Assembly (NCBI GenBank): GCA_022579005.1
Contig: MU401586.1
Coordinates: 42,542-106,541 of the forward strand
Direction of reading: 5' to 3'
Length of the DNA stretch: 64,000 bases
Origin: Poronia punctata
Taxonomy: Eukaryota; Ascomycota; Sordariomycetes; Xylariales; Xylariaceae
Shown here: one piece after another, positions 1 to 54,483 of the stretch
Numbering within the stretch: the first letter of the stretch is position 1
Layout of the letters: every line of letters starts with the position of its first letter
Translations under genes and position numbers: made by a program
Notes under the pieces: generated by a model
Told to the model about the DNA's origin: nothing
Database searches by the model: none
What the model saw: only the letters and a program-made list of their open reading frames with translations

Positions 1-3000
1 CTGCCCTGCAAATAGCTTGTTATAATAGCCCCAAGAGCGTCACCGTCTCCGGGCCTGTCAGTGCGCTGAAACAACTGCAGGAAAAGCTTCAGTTGGACGG
101 ACATTTTGCCCGTATGCTACAGGTTGACACGGCTTATCATTCGAAACACATTCACTCTTCCGGTCAACTGTACCGAGAACTTCTTCTCCGGCAATGTCCC
201 ACCAGTTGTTCCGGTAGCCACGAAATCGCCATGTATTCTACAGTTAATGGCACCCGGATCAAAGAACCTATGAGTCTGGCCTACTGGGTCGACAACATGG
301 TTTCACCCGTACAATTCAATGATGCGCTGTCTCAGATGATAGCTTCAGCCGAAAGAACCGGGTCCGATTCGGGTGTCAACTTTCTCGTTGAAGTTGGTCC
401 CTCCAACACCCTTGCCGGACCCATTGCCCAAATCTTGGAATCCGAGTCCTTGAGGAAGGCCGCAGAGACCAACGAAAATCTGGATATTCCCTATTACCCG
501 ATTGCCAAACGAGGCCCCGACACTTTACTCTCCCTTTACCATGTGGCAGGGGCCGTCTTCGCGGCCGGCGGCCCAGTCGACTTCTCACGTGTGAACGAAT
601 ACGGGATCGGAAAGCCACAGCCGTCCCTCCTTGTCGATCTACCGAGTTACACATGGACTCATTCCACCAAGTACTGGCACGAGGGACTGGCAAGCAGGGA
701 TTGGCGTTACCGTCAATTTCCACGACACGATCTCCTGGGATCGAAAATTCTGGGAACCAGTTGGAACTCGCCTACATGGCGTAACCGACTCAGTACCAAG
801 GATATGCCTTGGCTAGTAGACCACAAGCTGGGCGAGCTTGTTGTCTTTCCTGGATCGGGATATATCTGTATGGCCATGGAGGCGGCCTACCAGACAATGG
901 CCATGGTGGAGTGGACGGACAAAGAACCTGATGCGTTTCAGTACCGGTTCAGAGACATCAAATTTACTCGAGCGCTCGTTTTGGATGAAGGTTCAGAAAA
1001 TTCTCTCATCATGTTGAGCCTCTCGAAGACGTCTGTTCTCGCCGGATCATGGTACGAGTTCAAGATTCTATCCAACAAGGGGGCCATCGGGGAGGTGTGG
1101 CAAGACCACGCCACAGGGTTGGTACGATTGGAATCCGAGTTCACAAAGCATACGGCGTCTGAGGATATAACGGAGACACTGCACCAGCCAGTTTCCGCGG
1201 CACCGTGGTATAAATACACCAGCGAAGTCGGCTTTACCTATGGGCCGGCTTTCCAGAAGCATCTCACCATGGAATCCACTTCGGGACAACGCATCGGGCG
1301 ATCCCATGTATCCATGGAGCCGCCTAGTTCGCCATGGAAACAATCACGCTACGTAATACATCCTGTATGCATGGACGGATGCTTTCAAACCGTTGTTGGC
1401 CCAGTTCATGCCGGCGACTATACATCCATGACTTCGGCATTGGTGCCGACTGGGATAAAAGTCCTGGTCATCCCGGCGAGAGCTCAGCAGCCAAGCGAAG
1501 CCATATCGCACGCCCGAGCGAATTATGCGGGTATAGGCAGGATGCAGCAGGCCAAGAATTACTCCTGTGACTGCTCTGTGTATGACCCGAATGATGGCTC
1601 CTTGATCATGGACATGAGCGGACTGCGATTTTCGGAGCAGAATCCTTACCAGAACGCTAAGAAACCACAAGTGTACAGCCAGCTAATCTGGGATGTGGAC
1701 ATCTCAAAGATGACATACGAGATTGTCAACCATGTGGCCCAAGAAACAGTATCGGATCAGACAGCGAGGGGTGAAAGAGGTGGGGCTATGGTTGGACGAT
1801 TCCTGGACTTGGTGGCCTTCAAGAAACCCAACCTTCGTGTTCTCGAAGTCAATTTGGACTCGAGTGATGCTTCTAGCACGTGGCTAGATGAGCATCGAAC
1901 TTATACCTCTGCCGGTATGCGAGCTGCGTTCTCGGGTTATGTATTCATGTCTGATGATGCAAACTCGATTGTTACCGTTCGAGATCGCTATGGGACCCCG
2001 CCAAACATAGAGTACATAATGGGTGATTTCGAGGAATCTGGACTGAATGTGGCTGGCCAGTTCGATCTCATCATCGTCAAATGTTGTGGTAGCCGCACTG
2101 GATGTCTGCATTCATACCACCATGTCCTGGAAAACATCAAGCTCGGTCTATCAGACGACGGATTAGCAATACTCTGTCATGCTCAGAATGATGCAATCCG
2201 GGGTCCTTCTAATCTCGACCTGGAAGGGGATGATGCTCTCAGCATCTTCCAGTGGGAAGAATCTATTGCTATCATCCAACGACTACAGCCTAGGCCAAAG
2301 AGGGAGGAGGGCATATGCATCTCGAAGAATGTATACCTCGTCAGGATCGGAGAAGCAGAGCTAATACCACTGCAAAAGGGTCTTGCCAATGACACTTTAT
2401 GGAATATGATTTGCCTTGAAGATCCGTTTCAAGTCCCACCACACAGTCAGGTGCTTATTGTCGACGAGCTCGAAAATGCCATCATATCGTCTCCAAGCCC
2501 ACGTCAGTGGAATATTCTGAAGTACCTGATAGAATCCAGTTGTGCTATCCTTTGGGTCACGAAAGGTGCACAGATGGAAGTCGACGAGCCTTCTCGGTCC
2601 ACGATATTCGGCATGTTCCGCGTCATCCGTAATGAAGAACCACAGCTATCACTCATCAATCTAGATGTTGAGAACGCATTTTCCCTAGCTACTATCCGCG
2701 CCATTGACGCGTGTCTCCTCAAACTTGGCAAGTCAAACCCCCTTGAAGATACCGAGTTTGTAGAGCGCCGGGGTATTATACACATTAGTCGTGTGTTCCC
2801 CGACACCCTTTTAAGCAATGAAAGTGCAGAAAGTCCGATGGGCCGAGCGCTTGAGCCCCGAAAATTACACGCCTCTAAAGAAACCATTCGGTTGAAAGCC
2901 GAGAGGGTTGGGGAGATAGACTCACTTTCCTATACTGAACACGCCCCTCAACTCCCGAGTCTTGCGCCTGGATTCGTCGAGATAGAAGTCAAAGCTGCGG

Positions 3001-5287
3001 GCGTGAACTTCAAAGATGTAGCTGCCGTGATTGGTATCATACCTGAGGACGAACATCGTCTGGGAGGGGAGGGAAGTGGAGTGATTTCCCGGGTAGCCTC
3101 AGACGTGACATGGTTCCAAGAGGGGCAACGCGTCGCCTTTTTCGCCAGAGGCGCATTTGGTAACCGAGTAAGGGCCAAGGCAGATCTGGTTCAGGAGATA
3201 CCAAAGTCAATGAGCTTTGTGGAGGCGGCTACGATTCCCTGTGTGTATATGACGGCCGTCTACTCACTATTCCACCTCTGTCAGGTCAAGAAGGGTGATC
3301 GGGTTTTGATACATTCAGCTGCTGGCGGTGTCGGACTGGCTGCGGTCCAGATATGCCTTCATCTTGGTGCTATCGTGCGTTAATTCTTACTATGCCCCTC
3401 TTACCCTCCCTACGTATCAGGGCTTTTCCGTCACTAACAAGCTGTCCCTCTAGATATACGCCACAGTCGGAACGCCAGAGAAACGTACCTTTCTCAAAAT
3501 CCATTTTGACATCCCCGATAGTCGGATATTTTCATCGCGGAATACGTGTTTCGTAGACCAGATCTTCCATCACACGGGTGGTAAAGGTGTACACGTTATA
3601 CTAAATTCATTAGCGGGCGACCTACTTGAAGCTTCTTGGAGCATCATTGCCGATAACGGAACCATGATAGAGATGGGCAAGAAGGACATAATCGAGAACA
3701 AAAGCCTGTCCCTGGAGCCGTTCTCTCGAGGAGCGACGTATCGCGCCTTCGACATGGGCACAAGGAGCATTGACGACGATTTGAAGTCAAGGTAAGTAGA
3801 CATTGAACTCGAAACACCATTCTGGAATGTTTCTGATTGCCATCTGATAACACAGGCTCCTAAAGAGAGTATTCGAGTTGCTGAACGATGGACACGTCAA
3901 TCCCATCCCCAGGATCAACAAGTTCTCTTTTACTGATATCCCATCTGCTCTCAGAATGATTCGCGGCGGCGGCCACATTGGAAAGGCGGTCATCTGCGAT
4001 GACGGTAGCGACAATAATGACGACGTAACAGTGTTGGTTCGACCGTTCTCAAGGAGCATGAGCATTTGTGCCGATAAAGCCTACTTGATCGTGGGCGGGT
4101 TGAAAGGAATCTGTGGGAAGCTAGCCGTCTATTTTGCGAGGAATGGTGCCAAGGATTTAAGTATTATGACAAGGAGCCGCTTTGATGACGAGTTATCTCA
4201 AAAAGCAGCCAGCGATATTAGGGCCTACGGCTGCCGGGTTCATCTTGTGCAAGGGGACGTGACATCGATCGACGATGTACGCGCAGCCTTTCATGCAAGC
4301 CATCCAGTGCCTGTGGGGGGAATCATCCATGGAGCCATGGTCCTTAGGGTAAGTTCCAAACTCGGTAAAATCCACCAGCTTAAAATTGCGAGACATCTAG
4401 AACTAATGGTGCCCGTGTAGGATCGTACATTTGCCTCCATGACTTTAGACGAGTTCCAAGGGGCACTGGACTGCAAGGTCAAGGGAACATGGGCACTCCA
4501 CACCGTCAGCATGGAACATGGTCCGAGTGTCGAGTTCTTTACCATGCTATCAAGTTTGTCCGGAGTATGCGGCACCAAGGGTCAAGCCAACTATGCAGCT
4601 GGGAGCGCATTCCTCGATGCATTCGCGTGCTATCGGCACCGACTTGGACTGCCAGCCTGCTCCTTGGACTTGGGGATTGTCGAAGACATCGGCTACATGG
4701 CCAATCACGAGGATGTGGCACAGCGGCACGACGAGTCCATCTGGCAGAGGCTAAATGAGAGGACTCTGCAGAGAGCCGTGGCCCTATCAGTTATCGAACA
4801 GCAACAGATCTCGGGTGCCCACATCATCAGTACGCGGAGCCGAACCCAGATTCTTACCGGCATGCACGTGCCGCAACCAGAAAACTCGCCGCTCCTGCTA
4901 GACGCCAGATTCCTTGGACTCCACATAGCCGACGTATCCAGCATGTTGACGAAACCCAAGTCGAACGCCATGACCAGGGAGGGCGTCAAGAAAGAGGTAC
5001 AGGTGGTCCTGACAGCCATCCGCTCCAATACCAAGCCGCAGCCGGTCCTGCTCTCAATGGCCGTCAAGATTTTGGGCCACTACCTGTCCAAGGGCCTCAG
5101 ACTGTCGGATCCGTTGGACCCGACGAGGCCCCTGTCTATCTACGGCATTGACTCCTTGGCTGCCGTAGAGTTTAGGAACTTCATCAAAATGGAGTTCGGC
5201 GTTGAAATTAGCGCGCTGGAGATTGTGGACGCATCGTCACTCAACGTGCTGTGCGAAAAGATGATTGACAGGATCAAGAGAAGCTGA
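1..5287 (+). CDS. Highly reducing type I polyketide synthase, 5'-truncated by the window edge
   Basis: Exons <1-3374, 3454-3791, 3856-4348 and 4421-5287; the three introns (79, 64 and 72 nt) have GT...AG ends and keep frame. About 1,689 residues are visible. The KS domain and first part of AT lie upstream of the window. Order seen: end of AT (AYHSKH motif, about 130-560), DH (about 730-1640; catalytic His in VDHKLG, Asp in HPVCMDGCFQ), a methyltransferase-like core (about 1780-2250), ER (GVNFKDVA, then HSAAGGVG; about 2900-3960), KR (VGGLKGICG; SSLSGVCG...NYAAGSAF; about 4070-4760) and an ACP with the phosphopantetheine serine in GIDSLAAVE near 5150. There is no thioesterase after the ACP, as usual for this class. 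The methyltransferase core reads LEVNLDSS where active enzymes have a glycine-rich SAM loop, so C-methylation is probably lost. The DH motif has Glu where the HxxxGxxxxP pattern has Gly. No tailoring gene follows to the right, so any biosynthetic cluster extends leftward. Product unknown. Confidence 0.95.
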
Positions 5288-5825: not shown

Positions 5826-8800
5826 AACCGACCTATTAATACAAAAGATAAATAGAACCGCAAAGTCTAGGACAACATTTCGTTGTGGTTGGCCCTCCCC
5901 GAATATCCTCTATTATCATCTACATGTTGATAATGTATCAAGTGCTCTGCGCTATTTGTGACCGTTGGTGGGTGCGTATCGACTGGAGTGTAGACTTGCG
6001 TGAGAATAGTATGTCGCCGCCATCTTCGCGCTAGTTAAATAGATATTGAGGGGGCCCCGGGTTCTACGTAATCATCATATGTGACTTAAGGCAATCATGC
6101 ACGCCAAAGCATACCTACTTATGCCATGTTTTCCGACTTAACTACCAGGACAGTAAAGATGACCGATCAACATCAGATTCACAACTTCCTCAATACCTAC
6201 CACTCTATTATATACACGTCTCATGATATCATGTCTTTTGTTTTCCCACTACCAAGCTGACTTACGCAGAGCAACATGGGGGCAGCCAATATCTCCAGCT
6301 CCTGTTTCATCTATTTAACATTTTTTTTGCTTCCGCCTTGCTTACTCAGGAGGACATTGAACGTGTGTCGTCAGACAATCCCTACTATATGTTCATTCGC
6401 CGAGAAAAACCGTCGTGTACGGTAGACTTCAAGTAAGCGCAAGACCGGAATGGCAAGTTGCCAAACATGAAACTTGTTTCGGCCGCCGACCCTTCAGCCC
6501 CCTAGGGACCTTTCCTTGCTATCAAAGTAGGAGAGATATATGTATAGCCATGTACGCGCTTCTCTCTACCCAAGTATATCGTCGTCGTTTGGTAGCCACT
6601 TTGGGGGCAATATGCGTCCTTTTTTTCAACATCAACCGAAAAAGCACGCAAGTAGTTTAAAAAGGGGGATTACGTATAACGTCGCATGCATATATACATT
6701 CCATCCATCGTTCCAAGGGGCCTGTCGAATCTATCTCTAACAGCTGAAGAACCACGGTTTATTGTGCAACTTGGGGGTTGGGGGTTGAAGGCAAAGATCG
6801 TCTTACTGATGGCGCACACATGCAAAGAGGATAACCAGATGAGCGGCTAAAATCGGGGGCTAGAGAGAACCAGCAAGATTTTGCTGTGTCGCTCTATATC
6901 TTGTACATAAAACAGTACGCGAATGTCAGCTTTCATTCCATTCCATTTCAAGCACAACAACAATGGAAAACGCGTTGTCCCAGTCTCAGCCATGTGCCTT
7001 GTGTCATGCTGCCTCGGTGCAATCATCCGCCACCCCAGTCGCATAAGTCCCACGCATCATTTGGTAGAAAAACCGCCGAATGCTACCTTACCGGCCGACT
7101 GCTTATTATGTATGCGCCAATGCCACGTCCAATCCAGTCCCGTGGAACAGAGTATCATGGCTCAGCTCAGGGAGGGCCTGGTATGGATCCTTTATTTTTT
7201 AGATACTTGTTTGAAATGCTATTATCAACATATAGTCCGAGTCAACCCAGTTGCAGACCTACTCTCTTGTATGTCTATATATAAGGTACCCAGCTTGTTG
7301 GAAAATAAGAATTTTGTGCTTTTTCTGCCGGGCGTTTAAGAGTCTAAGGATGGTGATCAGGTCTATCCATCTAGTCTTGAAAACATGGAAAAAGGGATGT
7401 TATGATCATGTTCAATATGTGTTGATCTTTAACATGATTTGCCCTTTCCGTGTGACCCGGTCGCAATCTTGCTTTCAACAAAACTTGTGACTTCTAGCAA
7501 GACTCGATTTGGAGACATGCCCCGGTACCCCCATATTCGCCCTTATTCATTATCTTCTCGGGGGGGAATGCTTTAAACCTAAAACCTCTCTGATCAAGTC
7601 GGCGCTGAAATGTCACCAGACAATGGACTTGTCCTCCAACATTACTAGGACCAGATAAAAAAGCGCAAACAGTATGCAACTATAAAAAGAAGGAAACAAC
7701 TAAAAAGCGATGATAAACATCACAGAAAAAACATACAACACCAGGGATTCGCTGGTCGTCACCGACCCAACTACTGATCTGGCGGTATCCGGCTTAGCTA
7801 TGGGGGAGCGGACGGGACCCCGCGTTCTCCAGATCCTATGGTCGTATGTGATTACTCTCTGCACAGATATGGTTTATATACGCGAAAGACGGTTGGTCAC
7901 AAGAATGGGGATGCGAGAAATTAACATACTCGTACCTGCTACCTTATTTATTTCGATTCCCTTACATTTAAACCCTCGCCACTTAGGTATATCGAGTCTA
8001 TTTGCCAGCCGGCGGCATAAGAAGCTTTAATCTTTCTCACTCGTACAACAAGAGAGCGCCTAACCTATGCCTGGAGGGCAGACATCAGTTGAAATTCCAC
8101 ATTGTCCAGCCACTTCCCCCATCGGCCTCCGGTCATCTAATCTAATACCCCTCACGCCGCCGCCACCACAAAACACCCAAGCCCACTTCCACATCTAAAT
8201 TGCAGGTAACGGCAGGCGATAATGCGCCCTGCCAGTTGGACATTTGGGGGAGGACAATAAAACGTCCACCTAATTAACATCTAATTATCCAGTAGCACAA
8301 CCCACCTGTCAGAGTCTCAAGTAGATATTACCTAAGTACCTTAGGTTAGGTCGGTGCTAATTAAACATTCTAACAATAACCTAGGTCTGAGCGTTTGAAA
8401 ACGCGATCGATCAAGCCCGCAAGATGACTAGTTACCTACAGATAAACCGCCGTTTTGTATCAGGAGACTCGATTAGCAACACCTACAAGAGATCATTTCC
8501 TACAATCCTTGATTACCCCGGAAAACCTACCTATACTTTTAAGGTGTTGCCTGTCTACCCCACCACATCCTTCATCCCCGCTAGGTTAAGACTAGGTTAG
8601 TGCAAGAGCGGGGATAGAGTCTTCGGGACTCGCGCGACACGGCAACGGGAGTGGCGGCAGCTAAATCATCCACTAACCAAGGTACATGATAGATCTCGAA
8701 TCCTGCGGACAAGGGCAAGCAAATATCATCAGGTAAATTAAGAGCATGTACCTAAATATCATACTTGTTCGCCCTTAGAGACACCAAGGGAATAGGTGCT

Positions 8801-16515: not shown

Positions 16516-16652
16516 GCCCGGTTAGCTCAATCGGTAGAGCGTGAGACTCTTAATCTCAAGGTTGCGGGTAAGTCATGGAAAATAGTATGGTCGGCCACGA
16601 GCAAACCGAAAAACTAACAGAAGTTGAATAGGTTCGACCCCCGCATTGGGCT
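16516..16652 (+). tRNA. tRNA-Lys(CTT) with a spliceosomal-type intron in the T-stem
   Basis: After removal of 16568-16631 the gene folds as a complete cloverleaf. Acceptor GCCCGGT pairs with ATTGGGC (two G-T pairs). The D-arm is GCTC/GAGC. The anticodon arm is TGAGA-CTCTTAA-TCTCA with anticodon CTT at 16549-16551. The variable loop is AGGTT, the T-arm is GCGGG-TTCGACC-CCCGC, and the discriminator is T. Internal promoter elements are present: A box TAGCTCAATCGG and a B box GGTTCGACCCC at 16631-16641, so it should be a Pol III gene. There is no intron at the usual site next to the anticodon. CCA is not encoded, as expected in eukaryotes. Confidence 0.9.
16568..16631 (+). other. 64-nt intron with spliceosomal signals inside the tRNA-Lys T-stem
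   Basis: It starts GTAAGT, has CTAAC at 16614-16618 with the branch A 14 nt from the end, and finishes TTGAATAG. Length and signals match the mRNA introns of the neighbouring genes. Excision joins GCGG to GTTCGACC and restores the five-base-pair T-stem. Canonical tRNA introns sit between positions 37 and 38 and are cut by the tRNA splicing endonuclease. This one does not fit that substrate geometry. Confidence 0.75.
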
Positions 16653-16693
16653 CAATTCCTGATGCTCCCTGACTCTGTAGGGACTCAACCATC

Positions 16694-16701
16694 TTTTTTT
16701 T
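16694..16701 (+). terminator. Pol III terminator (T8)
   Basis: A run of eight T begins about 42 nt after the tRNA and is followed by further T-rich tracts. It is the first run of more than four T downstream of the gene. Confidence 0.65.
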
Positions 16702-17400: not shown

Positions 17401-18633
17401 CTAACCAGACTTGTTCTTATCCTGAGCCAATTCCTTGAGCGCCTGGCTTCCCCACTGCGTCTGGTTAAGCGTGAGCGCGGAATAGACGTTCAAGAACCCA
17501 TGGGCATAGCCGAAAAGGATGGACGCGGGCACGTAGACGAGATCCTGCGGGTATCGGCAGAAATGCGGCACAAGCTTGACAATCTTGAGGAAGAAGATCC
17601 AAATGGCGAGAGCCAGATAGCAAGCCGTGGCGTCGATGTCCATGTCGCGAATCATGTAGCGCAGAGCAAGGAAGACGAGCAAGTCCCAGATGAGCGAGGG
17701 AGTCTGGAACTGCGAGGCGTAGATGTAGTAGAAGCCCCAGATGTGGCGGGGTGAGAACCAGTATGTCTCGGTGGACATGACTGTGAAGTTTCCCCGCCAG
17801 TGGGCGCGGGCCCAGCGGAGACATTGCGCGATGTACAGGTGTCCGGACTCGACTGTTGTCTCGATGGTGGCGCGACGGTCGGGTTGGATGGCGATTTTCC
17901 AGCCTTGGGCGTAGACGTACCGGGTGAGGCACTTGTCGTCGTCGGAGTTGAGCCGTTGGCCGTTCCAGGAATCGTTGCGGAAGTAATCCATGAAGTCTTC
18001 AGATTGGAGGATTTTGGTGCGGTAGGCTGCTGTTCGGCCGGAGAGAGTGGAGATGGAGCCGTCGAGGACATTGGTGGCGAGATTATTCCAGACTCGACGC
18101 TCGAGGTAGCCGATTCCGAGGAAGTTCCAGAAATCAGGGTTGTCGTTGCGACGGACGCGTTGACGGGGGCCGCCTGCGCCGACATTGGGGTCCTCGAAGA
18201 CGGCGAGGAGATAGTCGAGGAAGCGAGGGGGCCAGAAGACGTCGTCGTCGGCAAGGACACTGATAGGGGTGCGAATCTCGGGCAAGACCTTGAGGATCTG
18301 TTCGCGCTTATGAAGAGCTGGGATGCCGAGGACTTTGACTTTGATGGAGTTATCACGACAGTACTTGGCAATATTGTCGACGTTAGCATCAGCCGTGACG
18401 ATGAGGATGGCGGCAGGGGAGCAGGCCGTGATAGTTTGCAGACACTTGAGCAAATTCTCGGGACTCTTAAAGGTTGTTGGGATTACGACCGAGACATCTT
18501 GTCCGGTGTACTTGGGTGTCTCCTGGATGGGAATCGGCTTGGAGAGCATGTAAGTCGGGATAGCCACGACTGCTCGGACATACCGAAAGGCAAAGACTCC
18601 GGCGAAAAGCGCGGTTGCAGCTGTGTTAGGCAT
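17401..18633 (-). CDS. Membrane GT2 processive glycosyltransferase (hyaluronan/chitin-synthase-like)
   Basis: Intronless, 410 residues. An N-terminal hydrophobic segment (about 5-30) precedes the GT-A domain, which begins VSVVIPTTF. Family motifs are all present: ADDDV (the DxD that binds UDP-sugar and metal), GRTAAYR, SDDDK (acidic catalytic motif) and QCLRWARAHWRG (the Q/RxxRW motif of processive synthases). Several hydrophobic segments follow (about 305-390) and would form the export channel. It is likely to add sugars to a surface polysaccharide from the cytosolic face of the plasma membrane. Related fungal GT2 proteins (Cps1-like, and the GT2 needed for hyphal growth in Zymoseptoria) are plausible relatives, by memory of family features only. 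Strong third-position G/C bias creates long shadow frames on the opposite strand. Confidence 0.9.
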   Translation of the reverse strand: MPNTAATALFAGVFAFRYVRAVVAIPTYMLSKPIPIQETPKYTGQDVSVVIPTTFKSPENLLKCLQTITACSPAAILIVTADANVDNIAKYCRDNSIKVKVLGIPALHKREQILKVLPEIRTPISVLADDDVFWPPRFLDYLLAVFEDPNVGAGGPRQRVRRNDNPDFWNFLGIGYLERRVWNNLATNVLDGSISTLSGRTAAYRTKILQSEDFMDYFRNDSWNGQRLNSDDDKCLTRYVYAQGWKIAIQPDRRATIETTVESGHLYIAQCLRWARAHWRGNFTVMSTETYWFSPRHIWGFYYIYASQFQTPSLIWDLLVFLALRYMIRDMDIDATACYLALAIWIFFLKIVKLVPHFCRYPQDLVYVPASILFGYAHGFLNVYSALTLNQTQWGSQALKELAQDKNKSG

Positions 18634-49558: not shown

Positions 49559-50692
49559 ATGAGTCTTCTTCGCTACGCCCTCGCCTCGGCGAGCTTCGCC
49601 GGCTCCGCGCTGGCCATCACCTCCACCGAGGCCGCCGCCCACGTCATCTTCTCTTACACGGGCACCGACCACCCGGCCGAGCTCAAGACCCTCGCCGGCG
49701 AATGCGGCATCGGCGGCGTCATCCTCTTCAAGGACAACGTCGACAGCAACCTAGGATCCTACCTCGACAGCCTACAGACTGCCTACGCGGCAGGCGGCTG
49801 TGACATCACCGGCCCTCTCCTCATGCTCACCGATCAGGAAGGCGGCCAAGTCCTCCGACTTCCCGGCGGGCCGACCTTGTCCGAGAAGGAGATTGGCCAG
49901 CAGAAAGACGTCACAGCCGCAGCCAACTCGGCCGGTGTGCAAGCTGCCAACGCGCTCAAGGCCTACTCGAACAACGGCAACTTGGCCCCTGTTCTCGACG
50001 TCTTCCACGAGGCGGGTGATTTCGAGGACCAGTACGAGCGCTCCTACAGCGACGACCCGGCCATTGTGGCCCAGGCCGCCGTCTCCTTCATCAAGGCCCA
50101 GCAGGGTCTAGGCGTCGTCGCTACGGCGAAGCATTTCCCCGGTCTGGGCGCCGCCGCCTCGGACGAAAATACCGATGCCCGTCCGGTAACTATCGATCGC
50201 AGCCTTGACGACCTCCGATCCATCGATGAAGCGCCTTATGCCGATGCCATCGCGGCCGGTGTTGGCATGATCATGCCTTCTTGGGCTCTTTGTAAGTCAT
50301 CTTCTTAAACTCCCGTGACCAATACCTTCGCTATTCATAAAACTAACTTCCCATCCCCTACCCCAGACCCCGCCCTAGACGATACCTACCCCAGCGGTAT
50401 CAGCAAGAAGTGGGTTCAAGGCGAACTCCGCGACCGTCTCGGCTACGACGGCGTCGTAGTAACAGACGCTATCGAGGCCGGTGGTCTGAACAACTTCGGC
50501 TCTGACGCCGGTGAGCGAAGTGTCCTCGCCATCTCGGCCGGCCAGGATCTCATCTTGGCCGCTGCTCACGAGGTTTCCCAGGGTCAGGCTATCGTGGAAG
50601 CCTTGGTGGCTGCTGTCGACGACGGGACTATCGATGCGGACTATTTCGCTGCTTCCACCGAGCGCATTCGCAAGCTACGGGCTACGTTGTAA
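49559..50692 (+). CDS. Secreted GH3-family glycoside hydrolase (beta-N-acetylhexosaminidase-like)
   Basis: Exons 49559-50291 and 50367-50692; 352 residues, matching the single-domain NagZ-like branch of GH3 rather than the 700-900-residue beta-glucosidases. A signal peptide (MSLLRYALASASFAGSALA) is followed by the barrel: GIGGVILFKDN, LMLTDQEGGQVLRLPG (substrate-binding DQEGG), VVATAKHFPGLGAA (KHFPG signature) and YDGVVVTDAIEAGGL (nucleophile Asp in TDA). This layout suggests release of N-acetylglucosamine or related sugars outside the cell. The general acid His loop of NagZ proper cannot be confirmed by eye. The exon codon bias is strongly G/C-ending, as in highly expressed secreted enzymes. 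Confidence 0.9.
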
Positions 50693-52049
50693 GGGATTGA
50701 GTTGATGACCTTGCGGAGATGGAAAGATGCGAGATACCTACTTACGTAGGTAGTAAATATGAATAAATATGAATAAATTGATGAATAAAAATGTCATCAT
50801 GAAGCAAGGTGTGAAGAGTTCGACGCATGGACAAAATAAGCAGAGGTACTTCTCTCTGTCGGTCTTTTGGTCTTTTCTTCCCTAGGTCCTTGGCATATTA
50901 ACAAGCAGACGTTGCCTACCTTATTTTCCATGGTCTAGCTTGCGTCCGCGAGGGGTGAAATATGGCGGTTTACATTTCAGATTCTTAACATTGAGGATGA
51001 CTTGGACCGGGTCAAAACATTTATGCCCCCCCCCCCAACCCCCTGTATGCCTATAATACAATAAGTATGAAGCCGAATGCCTGCATAACCTATTATTCAT
51101 GCTGGATTTAAGTAGAAATGTCCAGGGAGCTGAGATACTAGTACGTGGCTTTTGGCTGAGATTCTGTCACTTTTAGCCCCGTATACGAAAGGTGGCACAC
51201 ATGGTTCCGTGGACTTGAAAAAAGACTATTTACCGACTTTAGTAATGATCTTGAAACCTACTAGTGTCACTCGATCTTATCAATAGTCGGACACCGTCGC
51301 ACAGGTATATGCTTCGCCTTTACGGAAGAATCCGGTGGTAGGTACGACTTACGCTCATGTTACTAAGGGCCCTGTTGCAAGGAAGGTATATGGGAGTGTG
51401 ACTGTGGACCGAGCCTGATGATAGGTATCTATTGCGCCGTGCGACAAGACCTGATCATTTATCCTTCATTCACCGTCTACGGTATTCGATCAAGCAAGCA
51501 AAGCCTTTCGACGGGCCACAAGAGATCTCTTGCCGTGCGGCCTTGAGTGAATGAATGCTAGGTACTACTCGTAGACAATCCATTGGGACAAATTGGTAGG
51601 GACGGGTACGGTGAAATGGAAAGTTTGAGTTAAGCAATACCAATTCAATGCAGAATAATAACCAGAAGAAAGTAGAAGTTTATCTACCGACCGTGCTTGA
51701 GCAGCCACGGAAATCTTGCTCTTTGAGTTGCAAGTTGTGACAATATCTTGGGACATCGGAGGCCACCATGATGTTAAAACACACATACATACACCGTACG
51801 CATACACAGTGTATACAGTATCAGCTGTGGCTGTGCAACACCCATGTATGGTTGTTACTTTGTACAGGCATACCTGGTCTGGATGCTGTAAATGTTGCCT
51901 CATCAAAGAAAACGAGCTGACGAACAAATAGAATCATTGATTCATCGGTCATTATTACTTGCTGCACTTTTTGGAGAGTGTTGATTTATTATTACAATCA
52001 AGAGCGGCCTCGACATGGTCAAGTACGCCGTCATCGTACAGTGAGCACA
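50693..52049. other. Intergenic region, about 1.4 kb
   Basis: It includes a C11 homopolymer at 51026-51036. No gene supported. Confidence 0.5.
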
Positions 52050-54483
52050 ATGCCTTTGCTACCGTTAAACACCACTGTGGAGAAAGACCGGGCCCTGCTC
52101 TCACCCGTTTTGTACGACGACGACGCCGTGTCTCTGCGAAGTCGAAGCGATCAAGACAGCGATAGCGAAGATGACGAGATATTAGCCGCCGCACGAAATA
52201 GCAGAGAGCTCCGAGCTCGCGACCGTCTGGTGTTGATGCAAGAGGAAGAGATCGATCAACTGATCGTCAACTCGAGGGCGCAACAACAGCGACGGGGTAG
52301 CGGCCTTCAACGACGAGGAAGCAACCTGGCCTTACCCAATCCCATCGAAACCCTGCGACAGTATGGAAAACTGCGATCTAACGGATCGATCCACGACGGA
52401 GCTAGCTCAACCGAAGATTTACGTGATGAGAAACGGAGGAGCCGACGGAATAAACGCGTGGAGAGGAGGAATCGGATGCTGAAAGATGCGCGCGATGGCG
52501 AAGATGGAGAACTCATAAGCAAGATGGAGGGAGGCGCCATCAAAGACGGTAGTTCCACCGGCGAGAGTAGCGATCCCGAGGATAGCCAGGAACTCGACCG
52601 TCGCAACCTGTTGCATATTTCGGGGGCCAATACGGCCAAGAGGCGCAGGTGGTGGAAGTGGCTGTTCATCTATACCATCATCGCCGTCGCCTTTGCTCTG
52701 CTTGTTCTCGTAGCCTGGAAGATATCGCTGGACAAGAAACGGTCGACGGCTACCCGGCTTTTAAGCAATGGCACCGCACTCTTCGCCCCGACAACGCTTA
52801 TCATCAGTCTCGATGGTTTCCGCGCAGACTTCCTCACGCGTGGTATAACGCCACGTCTAAACGCATTCATCAAGGAGGGTGTTTCGCCCTTGTACATGAC
52901 CCCGTCCTTCCCCTCCGTCACATTCCCTAACCATTACACCCTGGCTACCGGCTTATACCCCGAAAGCCATGGTGTTGTTGGAAATACTTTCTGGGATCCG
53001 GCCTTGGAAGCCGAGTTCTACTACACCGACCCGAAACGAAGCCTCGATCCCAAATGGTGGGGGGGGGAGCCGTTCTGGGTCACAGCTGAACTGCAGGGTG
53101 TTCGGACGGCAGTACACATGTGGCCGGGGAGCGAGGCGCACATACACAACATGGATCCAAGCTTTCTCGACAAGTTCAACGGCGACGAAGCATTACCTAA
53201 CAAGGTCGACAGGATCCTTGAATTCCTTGACAAGCCTGGTCCAGAGGATCCAGACGTCGATGTCAAAGAAACACGGCCGCAGGTGATAGCGGCCTATGTT
53301 CCCAATGTGGATGCCATCGGCCACCGATTTGGCCCGAATAGCACCGAGATCCAGACTACAATTAGTGAAGTAGATGGCATGCTTGACAGCCTGTTCCATG
53401 GACTCGAGCAACGGAATCTGACCAGCATTGTCAACGTCATCATCGTGTCGGATCACGGCATGGCCACGACAGACGTCAGCCGGATGATTCAAATCGAGGA
53501 TATAGTTGATCTCGACAAAGTCGAACATCTGGACGGATGGCCCCTGGTGGGAATCCGTCCTAAGAAGCCAGAGGATCTGCAAGTACTTTACGAGCAGGCG
53601 GCTGAGAAAGTCAAGTCGAATCCAAACTTTGAAGTCTACCTCAAAGACAAAGATATGCCGGAACGTTTTCACTTTAGTAACAACGACCGCATCGCCCCTC
53701 TTTGGATTATTCCCAAAGCAGGCTGGGCAATTGTAGAAAAGGCCGAGTTTGATATCCAAGACGCCAAGGCAAACAATGTATCGTATCATCCACGTGGGTT
53801 GCATGGTTACGACCACGAACATCCTCTGATGCGAGCCATTTTCGTTGCTCGTGGACCGGCTTTCCCTCATCAGCCACACAGCAAAGTCGAAACATTCCGT
53901 AAGTTGTTGAAGACACTGTATCGCGTTCTGTTCCACATACTAACATGAAATAGAAAATATCAATGTGTACAACATCTTGTGCGACTCGATAGGCATGGAG
54001 CCGATGCCCAATAATGGAACACTCCGTTTACCCCTGAAAGTAGTCGGCCTTCATGACAATGAGACGGCCATTGAACAGCTAGAAGACCCGGTTCCGACTA
54101 CAACGGCACTTGCCACTGAGATTATGTCCATTCTCCCAGTGTCCACATCATCGTCGTCGTCGTCGTCGTCGTCATCATCATCACCATCGAACGTACCTAC
54201 GACATCTTTACAGGCTGAGCCTACCAAAGCTACGGCAGAGAAACCGGAGGAATCGGCCTCTCCAGCAGAACCTCAACCTGAGGAACCGCAACCTGAAGAA
54301 CCAGAGCCAGAAGAGCCACAACCATCAGACCCAGAACCGGATCAACCAGATGACCAAGACAAACCCGAAGATAAACCGAAAGGTATATTCGGCTCCTTGT
54401 GGGGCGCTGTTTCGGACACAGTCGAGTGGGTTGTGGACAAGGTCGATGATGTTGTCGAATCAGTGTTTGGCGGCGGTTCCTAA
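52050..54483 (+). CDS. Type II membrane nucleotide pyrophosphatase/phosphodiesterase (NPP family)
   Basis: Exons 52050-53898 and 53954-54483; 792 residues. The ATG at 52050 (MPLLPLN) opens a charged cytosolic tail of about 205 residues. One transmembrane segment (WLFIYTIIAVAFALLVLVAW) anchors it as type II. The catalytic domain holds every family motif: LIISLDGFRADF (metal Asp), PSFPSVTFPNHY (nucleophile Thr), NVDAIGHRFGP, VIIVSDHGMA and HGYDHEHPLMRA (metal Asp/His ligands). It resembles yeast Npp1/Npp2, which hydrolyse extracellular nucleotides for phosphate recovery. The tail after the catalytic part carries a Ser12 run (trinucleotide repeat near 54148-54185) and repeated PQPEEPEPEE blocks. 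Confidence 0.93.

What the first reader, a model, noticed from the sequence alone, without database searches (positions are those of the whole stretch)
16516..16652. tRNA-Lys(CTT) whose T-stem is split by a spliceosomal-type intron
The 64-nt insert begins GTAAGT, has CTAAC 14 nt before the end and finishes TAG, as the mRNA introns in this window do. Removing it exactly rebuilds the 5-bp T-stem. Nuclear tRNA introns are known next to the anticodon and are cut by the tRNA endonuclease. This location and these signals point to spliceosomal removal of a Pol III transcript. A precedent exists for another Pol III RNA: U6 snRNA genes of fission yeast carry mRNA-type introns. The B box overlaps the 3' splice site and survives both with and without the intron, so the gene could be transcribed before splicing. 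It may couple tRNA-Lys(CUU) supply to splicing activity.
Basis: partly seen in the sequence, partly recalled or inferred. Interest (0 to 1): 0.88.

Follow-up and report, generated by a model that had tools for sequence, protein, structure and literature searches.

The report
Lysine tRNA genes with mRNA-style introns
In a filamentous fungus related to Xylaria, most known copies of one lysine transfer-RNA gene are interrupted by introns that carry the splice signals of messenger-RNA introns, so this tRNA probably has to pass through the spliceosome, a route I found no report of for transfer RNAs.

Summary
The window lies in a 45 Mb genome of a Xylariaceae-like fungus. Window 16516-16652 is tRNA-Lys(CTT) with a 64-nt insert between T-stem nucleotides 52 and 53. 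Genome searches find 15 tRNA-Lys(CTT) loci (a lower bound): 9 carry an insert at this place (8 with intact exons, 1 with an extra nucleotide) and 6 have none. Across the 8 intact interrupted copies the 73 exon nucleotides are identical. The inserts (59-66 nt) have diverged to about background identity except at GTRAGY, a YTRAN branch motif 12-16 nt before the end, and WAG; none of 200,000 shuffled inserts met all three. Two mRNA introns in the window look alike. The bulge-helix-bulge motif of tRNA-endonuclease substrates is absent. Spliceosomal removal from a Pol III tRNA precursor is the best explanation (0.87), without RNA evidence so far. A second finding: all 14 intact copies share a 3' trailer whose variable hairpin is kept by compensatory changes (96 of 97 cells paired). 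Nucleotide 68 (U in the interrupted copies and one intronless copy, C in five intronless ones) lets tRNA-seq test the claim directly.

The parts
16516..16567 (+). tRNA-Lys(CTT) exon 1 (52 nt; acceptor 5' strand to T-stem nucleotide 52; anticodon CTT)
   Evidence: Identical in the 14 copies found by pattern; Rfam tRNA 49.5 bits
16568..16631 (+). 64-nt spliceosomal-type intron in the T-stem (junction 52/53; register ambiguous by -1 to +2)
   Evidence: GTAAGT, CTAAC, TAG; eight intact paralogous introns of 59-66 nt with such signals; no second match in the genome at E 10
16568..16573 (+). 5' splice site GTAAGT
   Evidence: GTAAGT 6, GTGAGT 1, GTAAGC 1 of 8 intact copies; the damaged copy C43 also has GTAAGT
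16614..16618 (+). branch-point motif CTAAC, predicted branch A16617
   Evidence: Motif CTAAC 4, TTAAC 2, CTGAT 1, CTAAG 1 of 8, ending 12-16 nt before the 3' end
16629..16631 (+). 3' splice site TAG, overlapping the Pol III B box (16631-16639 GGTTCGACC)
   Evidence: TAG 7, AAG 1 of 8; AG followed by GTTCGACC in 8 of 8; B-box consensus recalled
16632..16652 (+). tRNA-Lys exon 2 (21 nt), with U68 and discriminator U73
   Evidence: Identical in 8 of 8 intact interrupted copies and in intronless C270; 5 intronless copies differ only at nucleotide 68, C
16643..16665 (+). Helix h1: 16643-16650 (tRNA 3' strand) with 16658-16665 (trailer), 7-nt loop; would compete with the acceptor stem
   Evidence: 112 of 112 cells paired, slid controls 37-50%, but no double-sided change and covariation no better than shuffles, 197/500
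16666..16683 (+). Trailer hairpin h2 (16666-16672 with 16677-16683)
   Evidence: Over 14 copies 96 of 97 cells paired, 6 of 7 pairs with double-sided changes, 0 of 2000 shuffles as good, arms aligned by hand; this copy has the one mismatch
16686..16690 (+). CAACC tail, complementary to GGTTG 16560-16564 of exon 1 ('splint')
   Evidence: Predicted pairing; exon side invariant, so no covariation test possible
16694..16701 (+). T8 run, presumed Pol III terminator
   Evidence: Read directly; T runs of 5-11 follow the trailer in all 14 intact copies
53899..53953 (+). mRNA intron of a phosphodiesterase gene, for comparison: same signals
   Evidence: tblastn alignments of two Xylariaceae homologues break here; sequence
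50292..50366 (+). probable mRNA intron of a glycosidase-like gene, for comparison: same signals
   Evidence: Pattern; leaving it out continues the open frame

Best explanation
A genuine, working family of nuclear tRNA-Lys(CUU) genes, most of which carry an orthodox U2-type spliceosomal intron between T-stem nucleotides 52 and 53. Pol III transcribes the gene from internal A and B boxes (the 3' splice site AG recreates the first G of the B box). The spliceosome recognises GTAAGT, the CTAAC-type branch and TAG and joins the exons; only then can the normal T-arm, and with it the cloverleaf, form. The 14 intact copies, with or without intron, also carry a conserved structured 3' trailer that must be removed by 3' processing. 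Shown by sequence: gene family, exon identity, intron divergence with retained signals, absence of BHB, covarying trailer hairpin. Inferred: Pol III transcription, spliceosomal excision, order of processing, role of the trailer.
For: 9 of 15 tRNA-Lys(CTT) loci interrupted at the same place. Exon 1 identical in 14 of 14 pattern hits, both exons identical in 8 of 8 intact interrupted copies, while intron cores have mean pairwise identity 0.588 against 0.564 for shuffles. Splice signals kept in 8 of 8; shuffled rates 0.00093 (5'), 0.047 (3'), 0.107 (branch), all together 0 of 200,000; the branch window of 12-18 nt was set after seeing the data. Two mRNA introns of the window share the form. BHB fails in four registers. 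The one copy with a damaged tRNA, C43 (1-nt insertion), also has a degraded trailer hairpin by eye, as expected for relaxed constraint. Trailer hairpin h2 is kept in all 14, interrupted copies included.
Against: No RNA data. No related fungal genome could be searched here. Six intronless copies exist, so the interrupted ones may not be needed. Pol III transcripts lack the cap that helps first-intron splicing (recalled). In folding predictions the 5' splice site is mostly paired, mean unpaired 0.25. One intron ends in AAG and one has the weak branch CTAAG. C43 keeps its splice signals although its tRNA is damaged, so signals alone do not prove a working gene. Gene conversion could help keep exons alike.
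Confidence: 0.87

Rival explanations
1. Dead, interrupted copies: an insertion hit one tRNA-Lys gene and the broken copy was duplicated; the six intronless genes supply the tRNA.
For: Six intact intronless genes exist. [quoted passage not shown]
Against: 8 copies with zero exon differences but nearly saturated insert bodies and retained splice signals; T runs and covarying trailers intact. A damaged copy (C43) looks different.
Confidence: 0.05
2. The insert is a non-canonical tRNA intron cut by the tRNA splicing endonuclease and ligase, as proposed for archaea and Cyanidioschyzon.
For: Junction 53/54, one of the possible registers, is a listed archaeal site. The genome has ordinary anticodon-side inserts, e.g. 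in tRNA-Lys(TTT) (by eye), so the enzyme should be there.
Against: No bulge-helix-bulge: the best register has 3 of 4 central pairs (4 of 4 in one copy) with 1 of 3 outer pairs. The endonuclease would not explain conserved GTRAGY, branch and TAG.
Confidence: 0.04
3. The loci are not tRNA genes but another Pol III RNA (tRNA-like 5' part plus structured tail), whose working fold is the alternative one formed with the trailer.
For: The trailer is conserved in 14 of 14 intact copies with a covarying hairpin; predicted ensembles favour h1 over the acceptor stem in 13 of 14 spliced and 8 of 8 unspliced forms.
Against: No other tRNA-Lys(CTT) turned up in the searches (capped), and 14 genes is a normal number for a main AAG decoder (yeast number recalled). 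The cloverleaf is the predicted fold of the joined exons alone in 14 of 14. Cloverleaf and alternative fold differ by -5.3 to +1.5 kcal/mol in spliced forms.
Confidence: 0.04

Closest known systems
mRNA-type introns in U6 snRNA genes of fission yeast (Tani and Ohshima 1989, 1991; Frendewey et al. 1990: seen only as reference titles, and one introduction sentence of PMC10484740)
   Same: A spliceosomal-type intron in a short Pol III RNA; a B box in or at the intron
   Different: Here the host RNA is a tRNA, the intron sits at one site of a multi-copy family, and the one U6 hit of this genome is uninterrupted
Non-canonical tRNA introns of archaea, nucleomorphs and Cyanidioschyzon (Yoshihisa 2014, PMC4090602, passages)
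   Same: Insertion in the T arm of a tRNA gene, near 53/54 in archaea
   Different: Archaeal and Cyanidioschyzon ones use BHB-type motifs; Guillardia nucleomorph ones are 3-24 nt and cut in a way the review calls unknown. Here no BHB, 59-66 nt, GT-AG with branch motif
Canonical eukaryotic tRNA introns beside the anticodon
   Same: Intron in a nuclear tRNA gene; present in the same genome in tRNA-Lys(TTT) (by eye)
   Different: Position, signals and therefore presumably the enzyme
U2-type spliceosomal introns of this fungus's mRNAs
   Same: Splice signals, similar length (55 and 75 nt for the two compared) and branch spacing
   Different: Host transcript is a tRNA with Pol III promoter elements and a T-run terminator

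Membership tests
U2-type spliceosomal intron | 5' splice site GTRAGT-like | tested here: met
   8 of 8 GTRAGY
U2-type spliceosomal intron | Branch motif (fungal CTRAY-like) at short distance from the 3' end | tested here: met
   8 of 8 with YTRAN ending 12-16 nt before the end; 5 fit CTRAY strictly (CTAAC 4, CTGAT 1), TTAAC 2 and CTAAG 1 are weaker
U2-type spliceosomal intron | 3' AG | tested here: met
   TAG 7, AAG 1 of 8
U2-type spliceosomal intron | Excised as lariat by the spliceosome | not testable with these tools
   No RNA data available
tRNA endonuclease intron | Canonical position beside the anticodon (37/38) | tested here: not met
   Junction 52/53
tRNA endonuclease intron | Bulge-helix-bulge at both junctions | tested here: not met
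   Four registers, 8 copies; relaxed half-motifs were not tested
Functional nuclear tRNA-Lys(CUU) gene | Cloverleaf with anticodon CTT after removal of the insert | tested here: met
   Rfam match over the cut-off; cloverleaf is the MFE of the joined exons
Functional nuclear tRNA-Lys(CUU) gene | Internal B box and T-run terminator | tested here: met
   GGTTCGACC at the 3' splice site and T runs of 5-11; consensus recalled
Functional nuclear tRNA-Lys(CUU) gene | Expressed and aminoacylated | not testable with these tools
   No RNA data available
tRNA pseudogene | Exon substitutions or indels relative to intact copies | tested here: not met
   0 differences in 8 copies; met only by C43

The most novel reading that the evidence does not exclude
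This is a nuclear tRNA family matured by the spliceosome: the U68 isodecoder of tRNA-Lys(CUU) comes mainly from intron-containing Pol III genes. Its precursor carries a conserved structured trailer that can pair with tRNA strands on both sides of the intron and so acts as a folding switch setting the order of splicing and end processing, tying lysine-AAG decoding capacity to splicing activity.
Probability: 0.3. Interest if true: 0.93.

Novelty: new variant of a known kind. Interest (0 to 1): 0.87.

Why it matters
tRNA introns and mRNA introns are textbook-separate pathways (endonuclease plus ligase against spliceosome). A multi-copy, selectively maintained tRNA family with spliceosomal introns would show that the spliceosome can mature a tRNA, that Pol III transcripts other than U6 are its substrates, and would let intron gain and loss be studied in an RNA whose structure is well understood. 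ARAGORN, the one tRNA finder run here, reported nothing at 6 of the 8 intact interrupted copies and at 2 (C20, C96) a wrong tRNA ending inside the intron, so further cases may be hidden in other genomes. The U68/C68 difference makes the claim testable by sequencing alone.

Tried and rejected
Bulge-helix-bulge motif at the junctions: tested in registers -1 to +2, not found.

Introner or mobile-element origin: the window's insert and the C96 insert (2 of the 9 inserts) have no second match in the genome at E 10 or better, so no recent spread is visible. A stretch near the 5' end (ACATGTTCAAA-like) is shared by eye among four inserts (C8b, C14, C96, C20), which suggests common descent.

Similar introns in other tRNAs: pattern GTRAGTN{35,65}AGGTTCRANNCC gave 12 places, 7 of them tRNA-Lys; ARAGORN found no tRNA at the other 5; I read 3 of those 5 by eye, the two minus-strand ones (L064, L075) were not printed because my script read the plus strand only. 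TAGGTTCRANYCC gave 48 places (19 for the reversed control pattern), 8 of them tRNA-Lys; I fetched 17 of the other 40 and read them by eye: five looked like Ser/Leu-type tRNAs, apparently with anticodon-side introns, the rest were repeats or nothing tRNA-like. Among the 63 Rfam tRNA hits (63 scored of 2574 candidates) the six other hits of 96 nt or more have their insert beside the anticodon (by eye). The tRNA list is incomplete, so other cases are not excluded.

Introns in other Pol III RNAs: U6 (1 hit, 100 nt), RNase P RNA (1 hit, 323 nt for a 301-position model) and 5S rRNA (47 hits, each 120 nt) show no intron-sized excess; these lists are capped too.

Trailer as a splice-site opener: predicted 5' splice site accessibility is 0.25 with the trailer, 0.31 without and 0.31 with shuffled trailers, so this idea got no support. 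The acceptor stem is less probable with the real trailer (mean 0.07) than with shuffled ones (0.21) or none (0.77); the contrast with shuffles is modest. Helix h1 shows no covariation beyond shuffles.

A first trailer control gave tRNA-Lys only 0.66 against 0.57, because two interrupted copies were entered with intron sequence as 'trailer'; the corrected figure is 0.742 against 0.573 over 14 copies.

Papers: ten searches showed no title or abstract start reporting a spliceosomal intron in a tRNA; only the first 20, 20 and 15 of 42, 76 and 77 papers were listed, and the library holds open-licence papers only.

Full report
WHAT IS THERE. Window 16516-16652 reads as tRNA-Lys(CTT) with 64 extra bases in the T-stem. 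Rfam's tRNA model matches exactly this span with 49.5 bits against a cut-off of 29 and places the excess in the T arm. ARAGORN reports no tRNA in the window. The insert begins GTAAGT, has CTAAC with the predicted branch A at 16617, and ends TAG. It splits T-stem nucleotide 52 from 53. Because GGT occurs at both ends, the junction could be slid by -1 to +2.

WHOSE GENOME. The window is part of a 45.05 Mb, 573-contig assembly. A phosphodiesterase encoded at 51978-53948 is 79-83% identical to its 23 best listed hits, all named as Xylaria, Nemania, Rosellinia, Ustulina or unnamed Xylariaceae. A glycosyltransferase at 17401-18633 is also closest to Xylaria, 60-65% for the first hits, followed by Dothideomycetes (class recalled). 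The fungus is thus of or near the Xylariaceae; I do not know the species.

A FAMILY, NOT A SINGLE ODDITY. A 47-nt exon-1 pattern with up to 3 mismatches finds 14 copies, all perfect. A DNA search with an 86-nt composite of the joined gene finds the same 14 plus one more at C43, 15 loci in all, a lower bound. Eight of the 14 are interrupted at exactly the same place (C8 twice, C14, C20, C77, C84, C96, C133) and six are not (C4, C30, C117, C200, C206, C270). C43 is interrupted too, has one extra nucleotide after the D arm and, by eye, a degraded trailer hairpin, though its splice signals are still there; it is probably decaying.

SELECTION. Exon 1 (52 nt) is identical in 14 of 14 copies. Exon 2 (21 nt) is identical in the 8 interrupted copies and C270; the other five intronless copies differ only at nucleotide 68, C instead of U. 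The intron cores have mean pairwise identity 0.588 against 0.564 for shuffled cores; the first 50 upstream bases 0.603 against 0.580. Introns and leaders are therefore near saturation while the exons have hardly changed. Against this background GTRAGY is kept in 8 of 8, a YTRAN motif ending 12-16 nt before the end in 8 of 8, and WAG in 8 of 8. In 200,000 shuffled inserts the features occurred singly at rates 0.00093, 0.107 and 0.047, and never together; the branch window was chosen after seeing the data. Constraint on splice signals inside otherwise free inserts, flanked by perfectly constrained tRNA halves, is what functional splicing predicts. Gene conversion among copies could contribute to exon identity, but it would have to stop at the splice sites.

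WHICH MACHINE. Bulge-helix-bulge geometry was scored for the 8 introns in four registers. The best register gives 3 of 4 central pairs (4 of 4 in one copy) and 1 of 3 outer pairs, so the motif is absent. Two mRNA introns in the window have the same build: 53899-53953 in the phosphodiesterase gene, where tblastn alignments of two homologues break, and 50292-50366 in a glycosidase-like gene, where leaving it out continues the open frame. The strict pattern occurs 3 times in the window, including the tRNA insert, against 0.30 expected. The spliceosome is the simplest agent. The two inserts searched have no relative elsewhere in the genome.

TRANSCRIPTION. The 3' splice site abuts the B box: AG followed by GTTCGACC gives GGTTCGACC in 8 of 8, as does the joined tRNA, so the box is present with and without the intron. 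T runs of 5-11 follow all 14 intact copies. C20 and C96 also hold a second B-box-like GTTCAAATC inside the intron, which recalls the B box in the U6 intron of Schizosaccharomyces (a cited title seen). A box, B box and terminator consensus are recalled knowledge.

AN UNEXPECTED TRAILER. The first 45 bases after the tRNA have mean identity 0.742 against 0.573 for shuffles over 14 copies (0.771 against 0.584 in the 8 interrupted, 0.769 against 0.559 in the 6 intronless ones). As a control, 14 other tRNA species were seen in the fetched loci, and 9 of them had two or more copies: 8 of the 9 lie within 0.06 of their shuffles, and tRNA-Met, a single pair, exceeds them by 0.09. The Lys row is lower (0.66 against 0.57) because two interrupted copies were entered with intron sequence as trailer. 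The Lys trailer reads CAATTCCYRATGC, then a hairpin, then in most copies an AACC- or AGCC-type tail before the T run. The hairpin (h2) varies in sequence yet pairs in 96 of 97 cells over 14 copies (75 of 76 over 11 distinct pairs of arms), with double-sided changes at 6 of 7 pairs and 0 of 2000 shuffles as good (arms chosen and aligned by hand). It is very probably a real RNA structure, in interrupted and uninterrupted copies alike. The YRATGC part can pair with the tRNA's own 3' strand (h1, 8 pairs, 112 of 112 cells), but without covariation beyond shuffles. The tail can pair with GGTTG(C) just before the 5' splice site (predicted above 0.5 in 12 of 14 spliced forms). Predicted ensembles favour h1 over the acceptor stem in 13 of 14 spliced and 8 of 8 unspliced forms. 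In constrained folds without the leader, however, the difference is only -5.3 to +1.5 kcal/mol for spliced forms, in favour of the cloverleaf in 5 of 14, and -8.1 to +2.2 for unspliced ones, and shuffled trailers also disturb the cloverleaf to a lesser degree. A folding switch is thus possible, not shown. The trailer does not make the splice sites more accessible in prediction. All 15 trailer-motif matches with 0 or 1 mismatch belong to the 15 tRNA-Lys loci.

WHAT IS NOT AFFECTED. The single U6 and RNase P RNA hits and the 47 5S rRNA hits show no intron-sized excess. tRNA-Lys(TTT) has inserts beside the anticodon (by eye). No other tRNA with a T-arm intron was seen, with the limits stated under Tried and rejected.

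COMPARISON. Yoshihisa's review (PMC4090602, passages) says that D- and T-arm insertions in eukaryotic tRNA genes mostly sit in one of many synonymous genes and are supposed to be pseudogenes, with exceptions in nucleomorphs (excision confirmed, mechanism unknown) and Cyanidioschyzon (BHB and endonuclease). Here most copies are interrupted and the exons are perfect. [quoted passage not shown] Ten paper searches showed no title or abstract start reporting a spliceosomal intron in a tRNA gene; lists were partly cut and subscription papers are not in that library.

VERDICT. By sequence criteria the intron is an ordinary member of the spliceosomal class; what is new is its host. The decisive and cheap test is tRNA-seq across the 52/53 junction together with the U68/C68 ratio.

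Noticed in passing
window 16653-16690 and the other 13 intact tRNA-Lys(CTT) copies: Conserved, structured 3' trailer with a covarying hairpin, not seen in the nine other multi-copy tRNA species compared; function unknown.
   Followed up: partly
G000 C43:381-557 (minus; L077, L094, L102): A fifteenth tRNA-Lys(CTT) copy with a longer T-arm intron (about 91 nt), a 1-nt insertion after the D arm and a degraded trailer hairpin: apparently a decaying copy.
   Followed up: partly
L123, L124 and other places listed (pairs about 310 nt apart on C50, C51, C62, C212, C456): A repeat family with a B-box-like TAGGTTCGATTCC in a shared context, perhaps a tRNA-derived or other mobile repeat.
   Followed up: no
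G000 C270 (L006) against C8b (L013): Intronless C270 shares U68 and the trailer variant CCTAATGC with an interrupted copy, which may point to a precise intron loss.
   Followed up: no
window 7730-7849 (minus): One of 47 dispersed 5S rRNA gene hits, each 120 nt, scattered over the contigs.
   Followed up: no
window 93-5287: Large polyketide-synthase-like open frames (judged from the translation, not searched).
   Followed up: no
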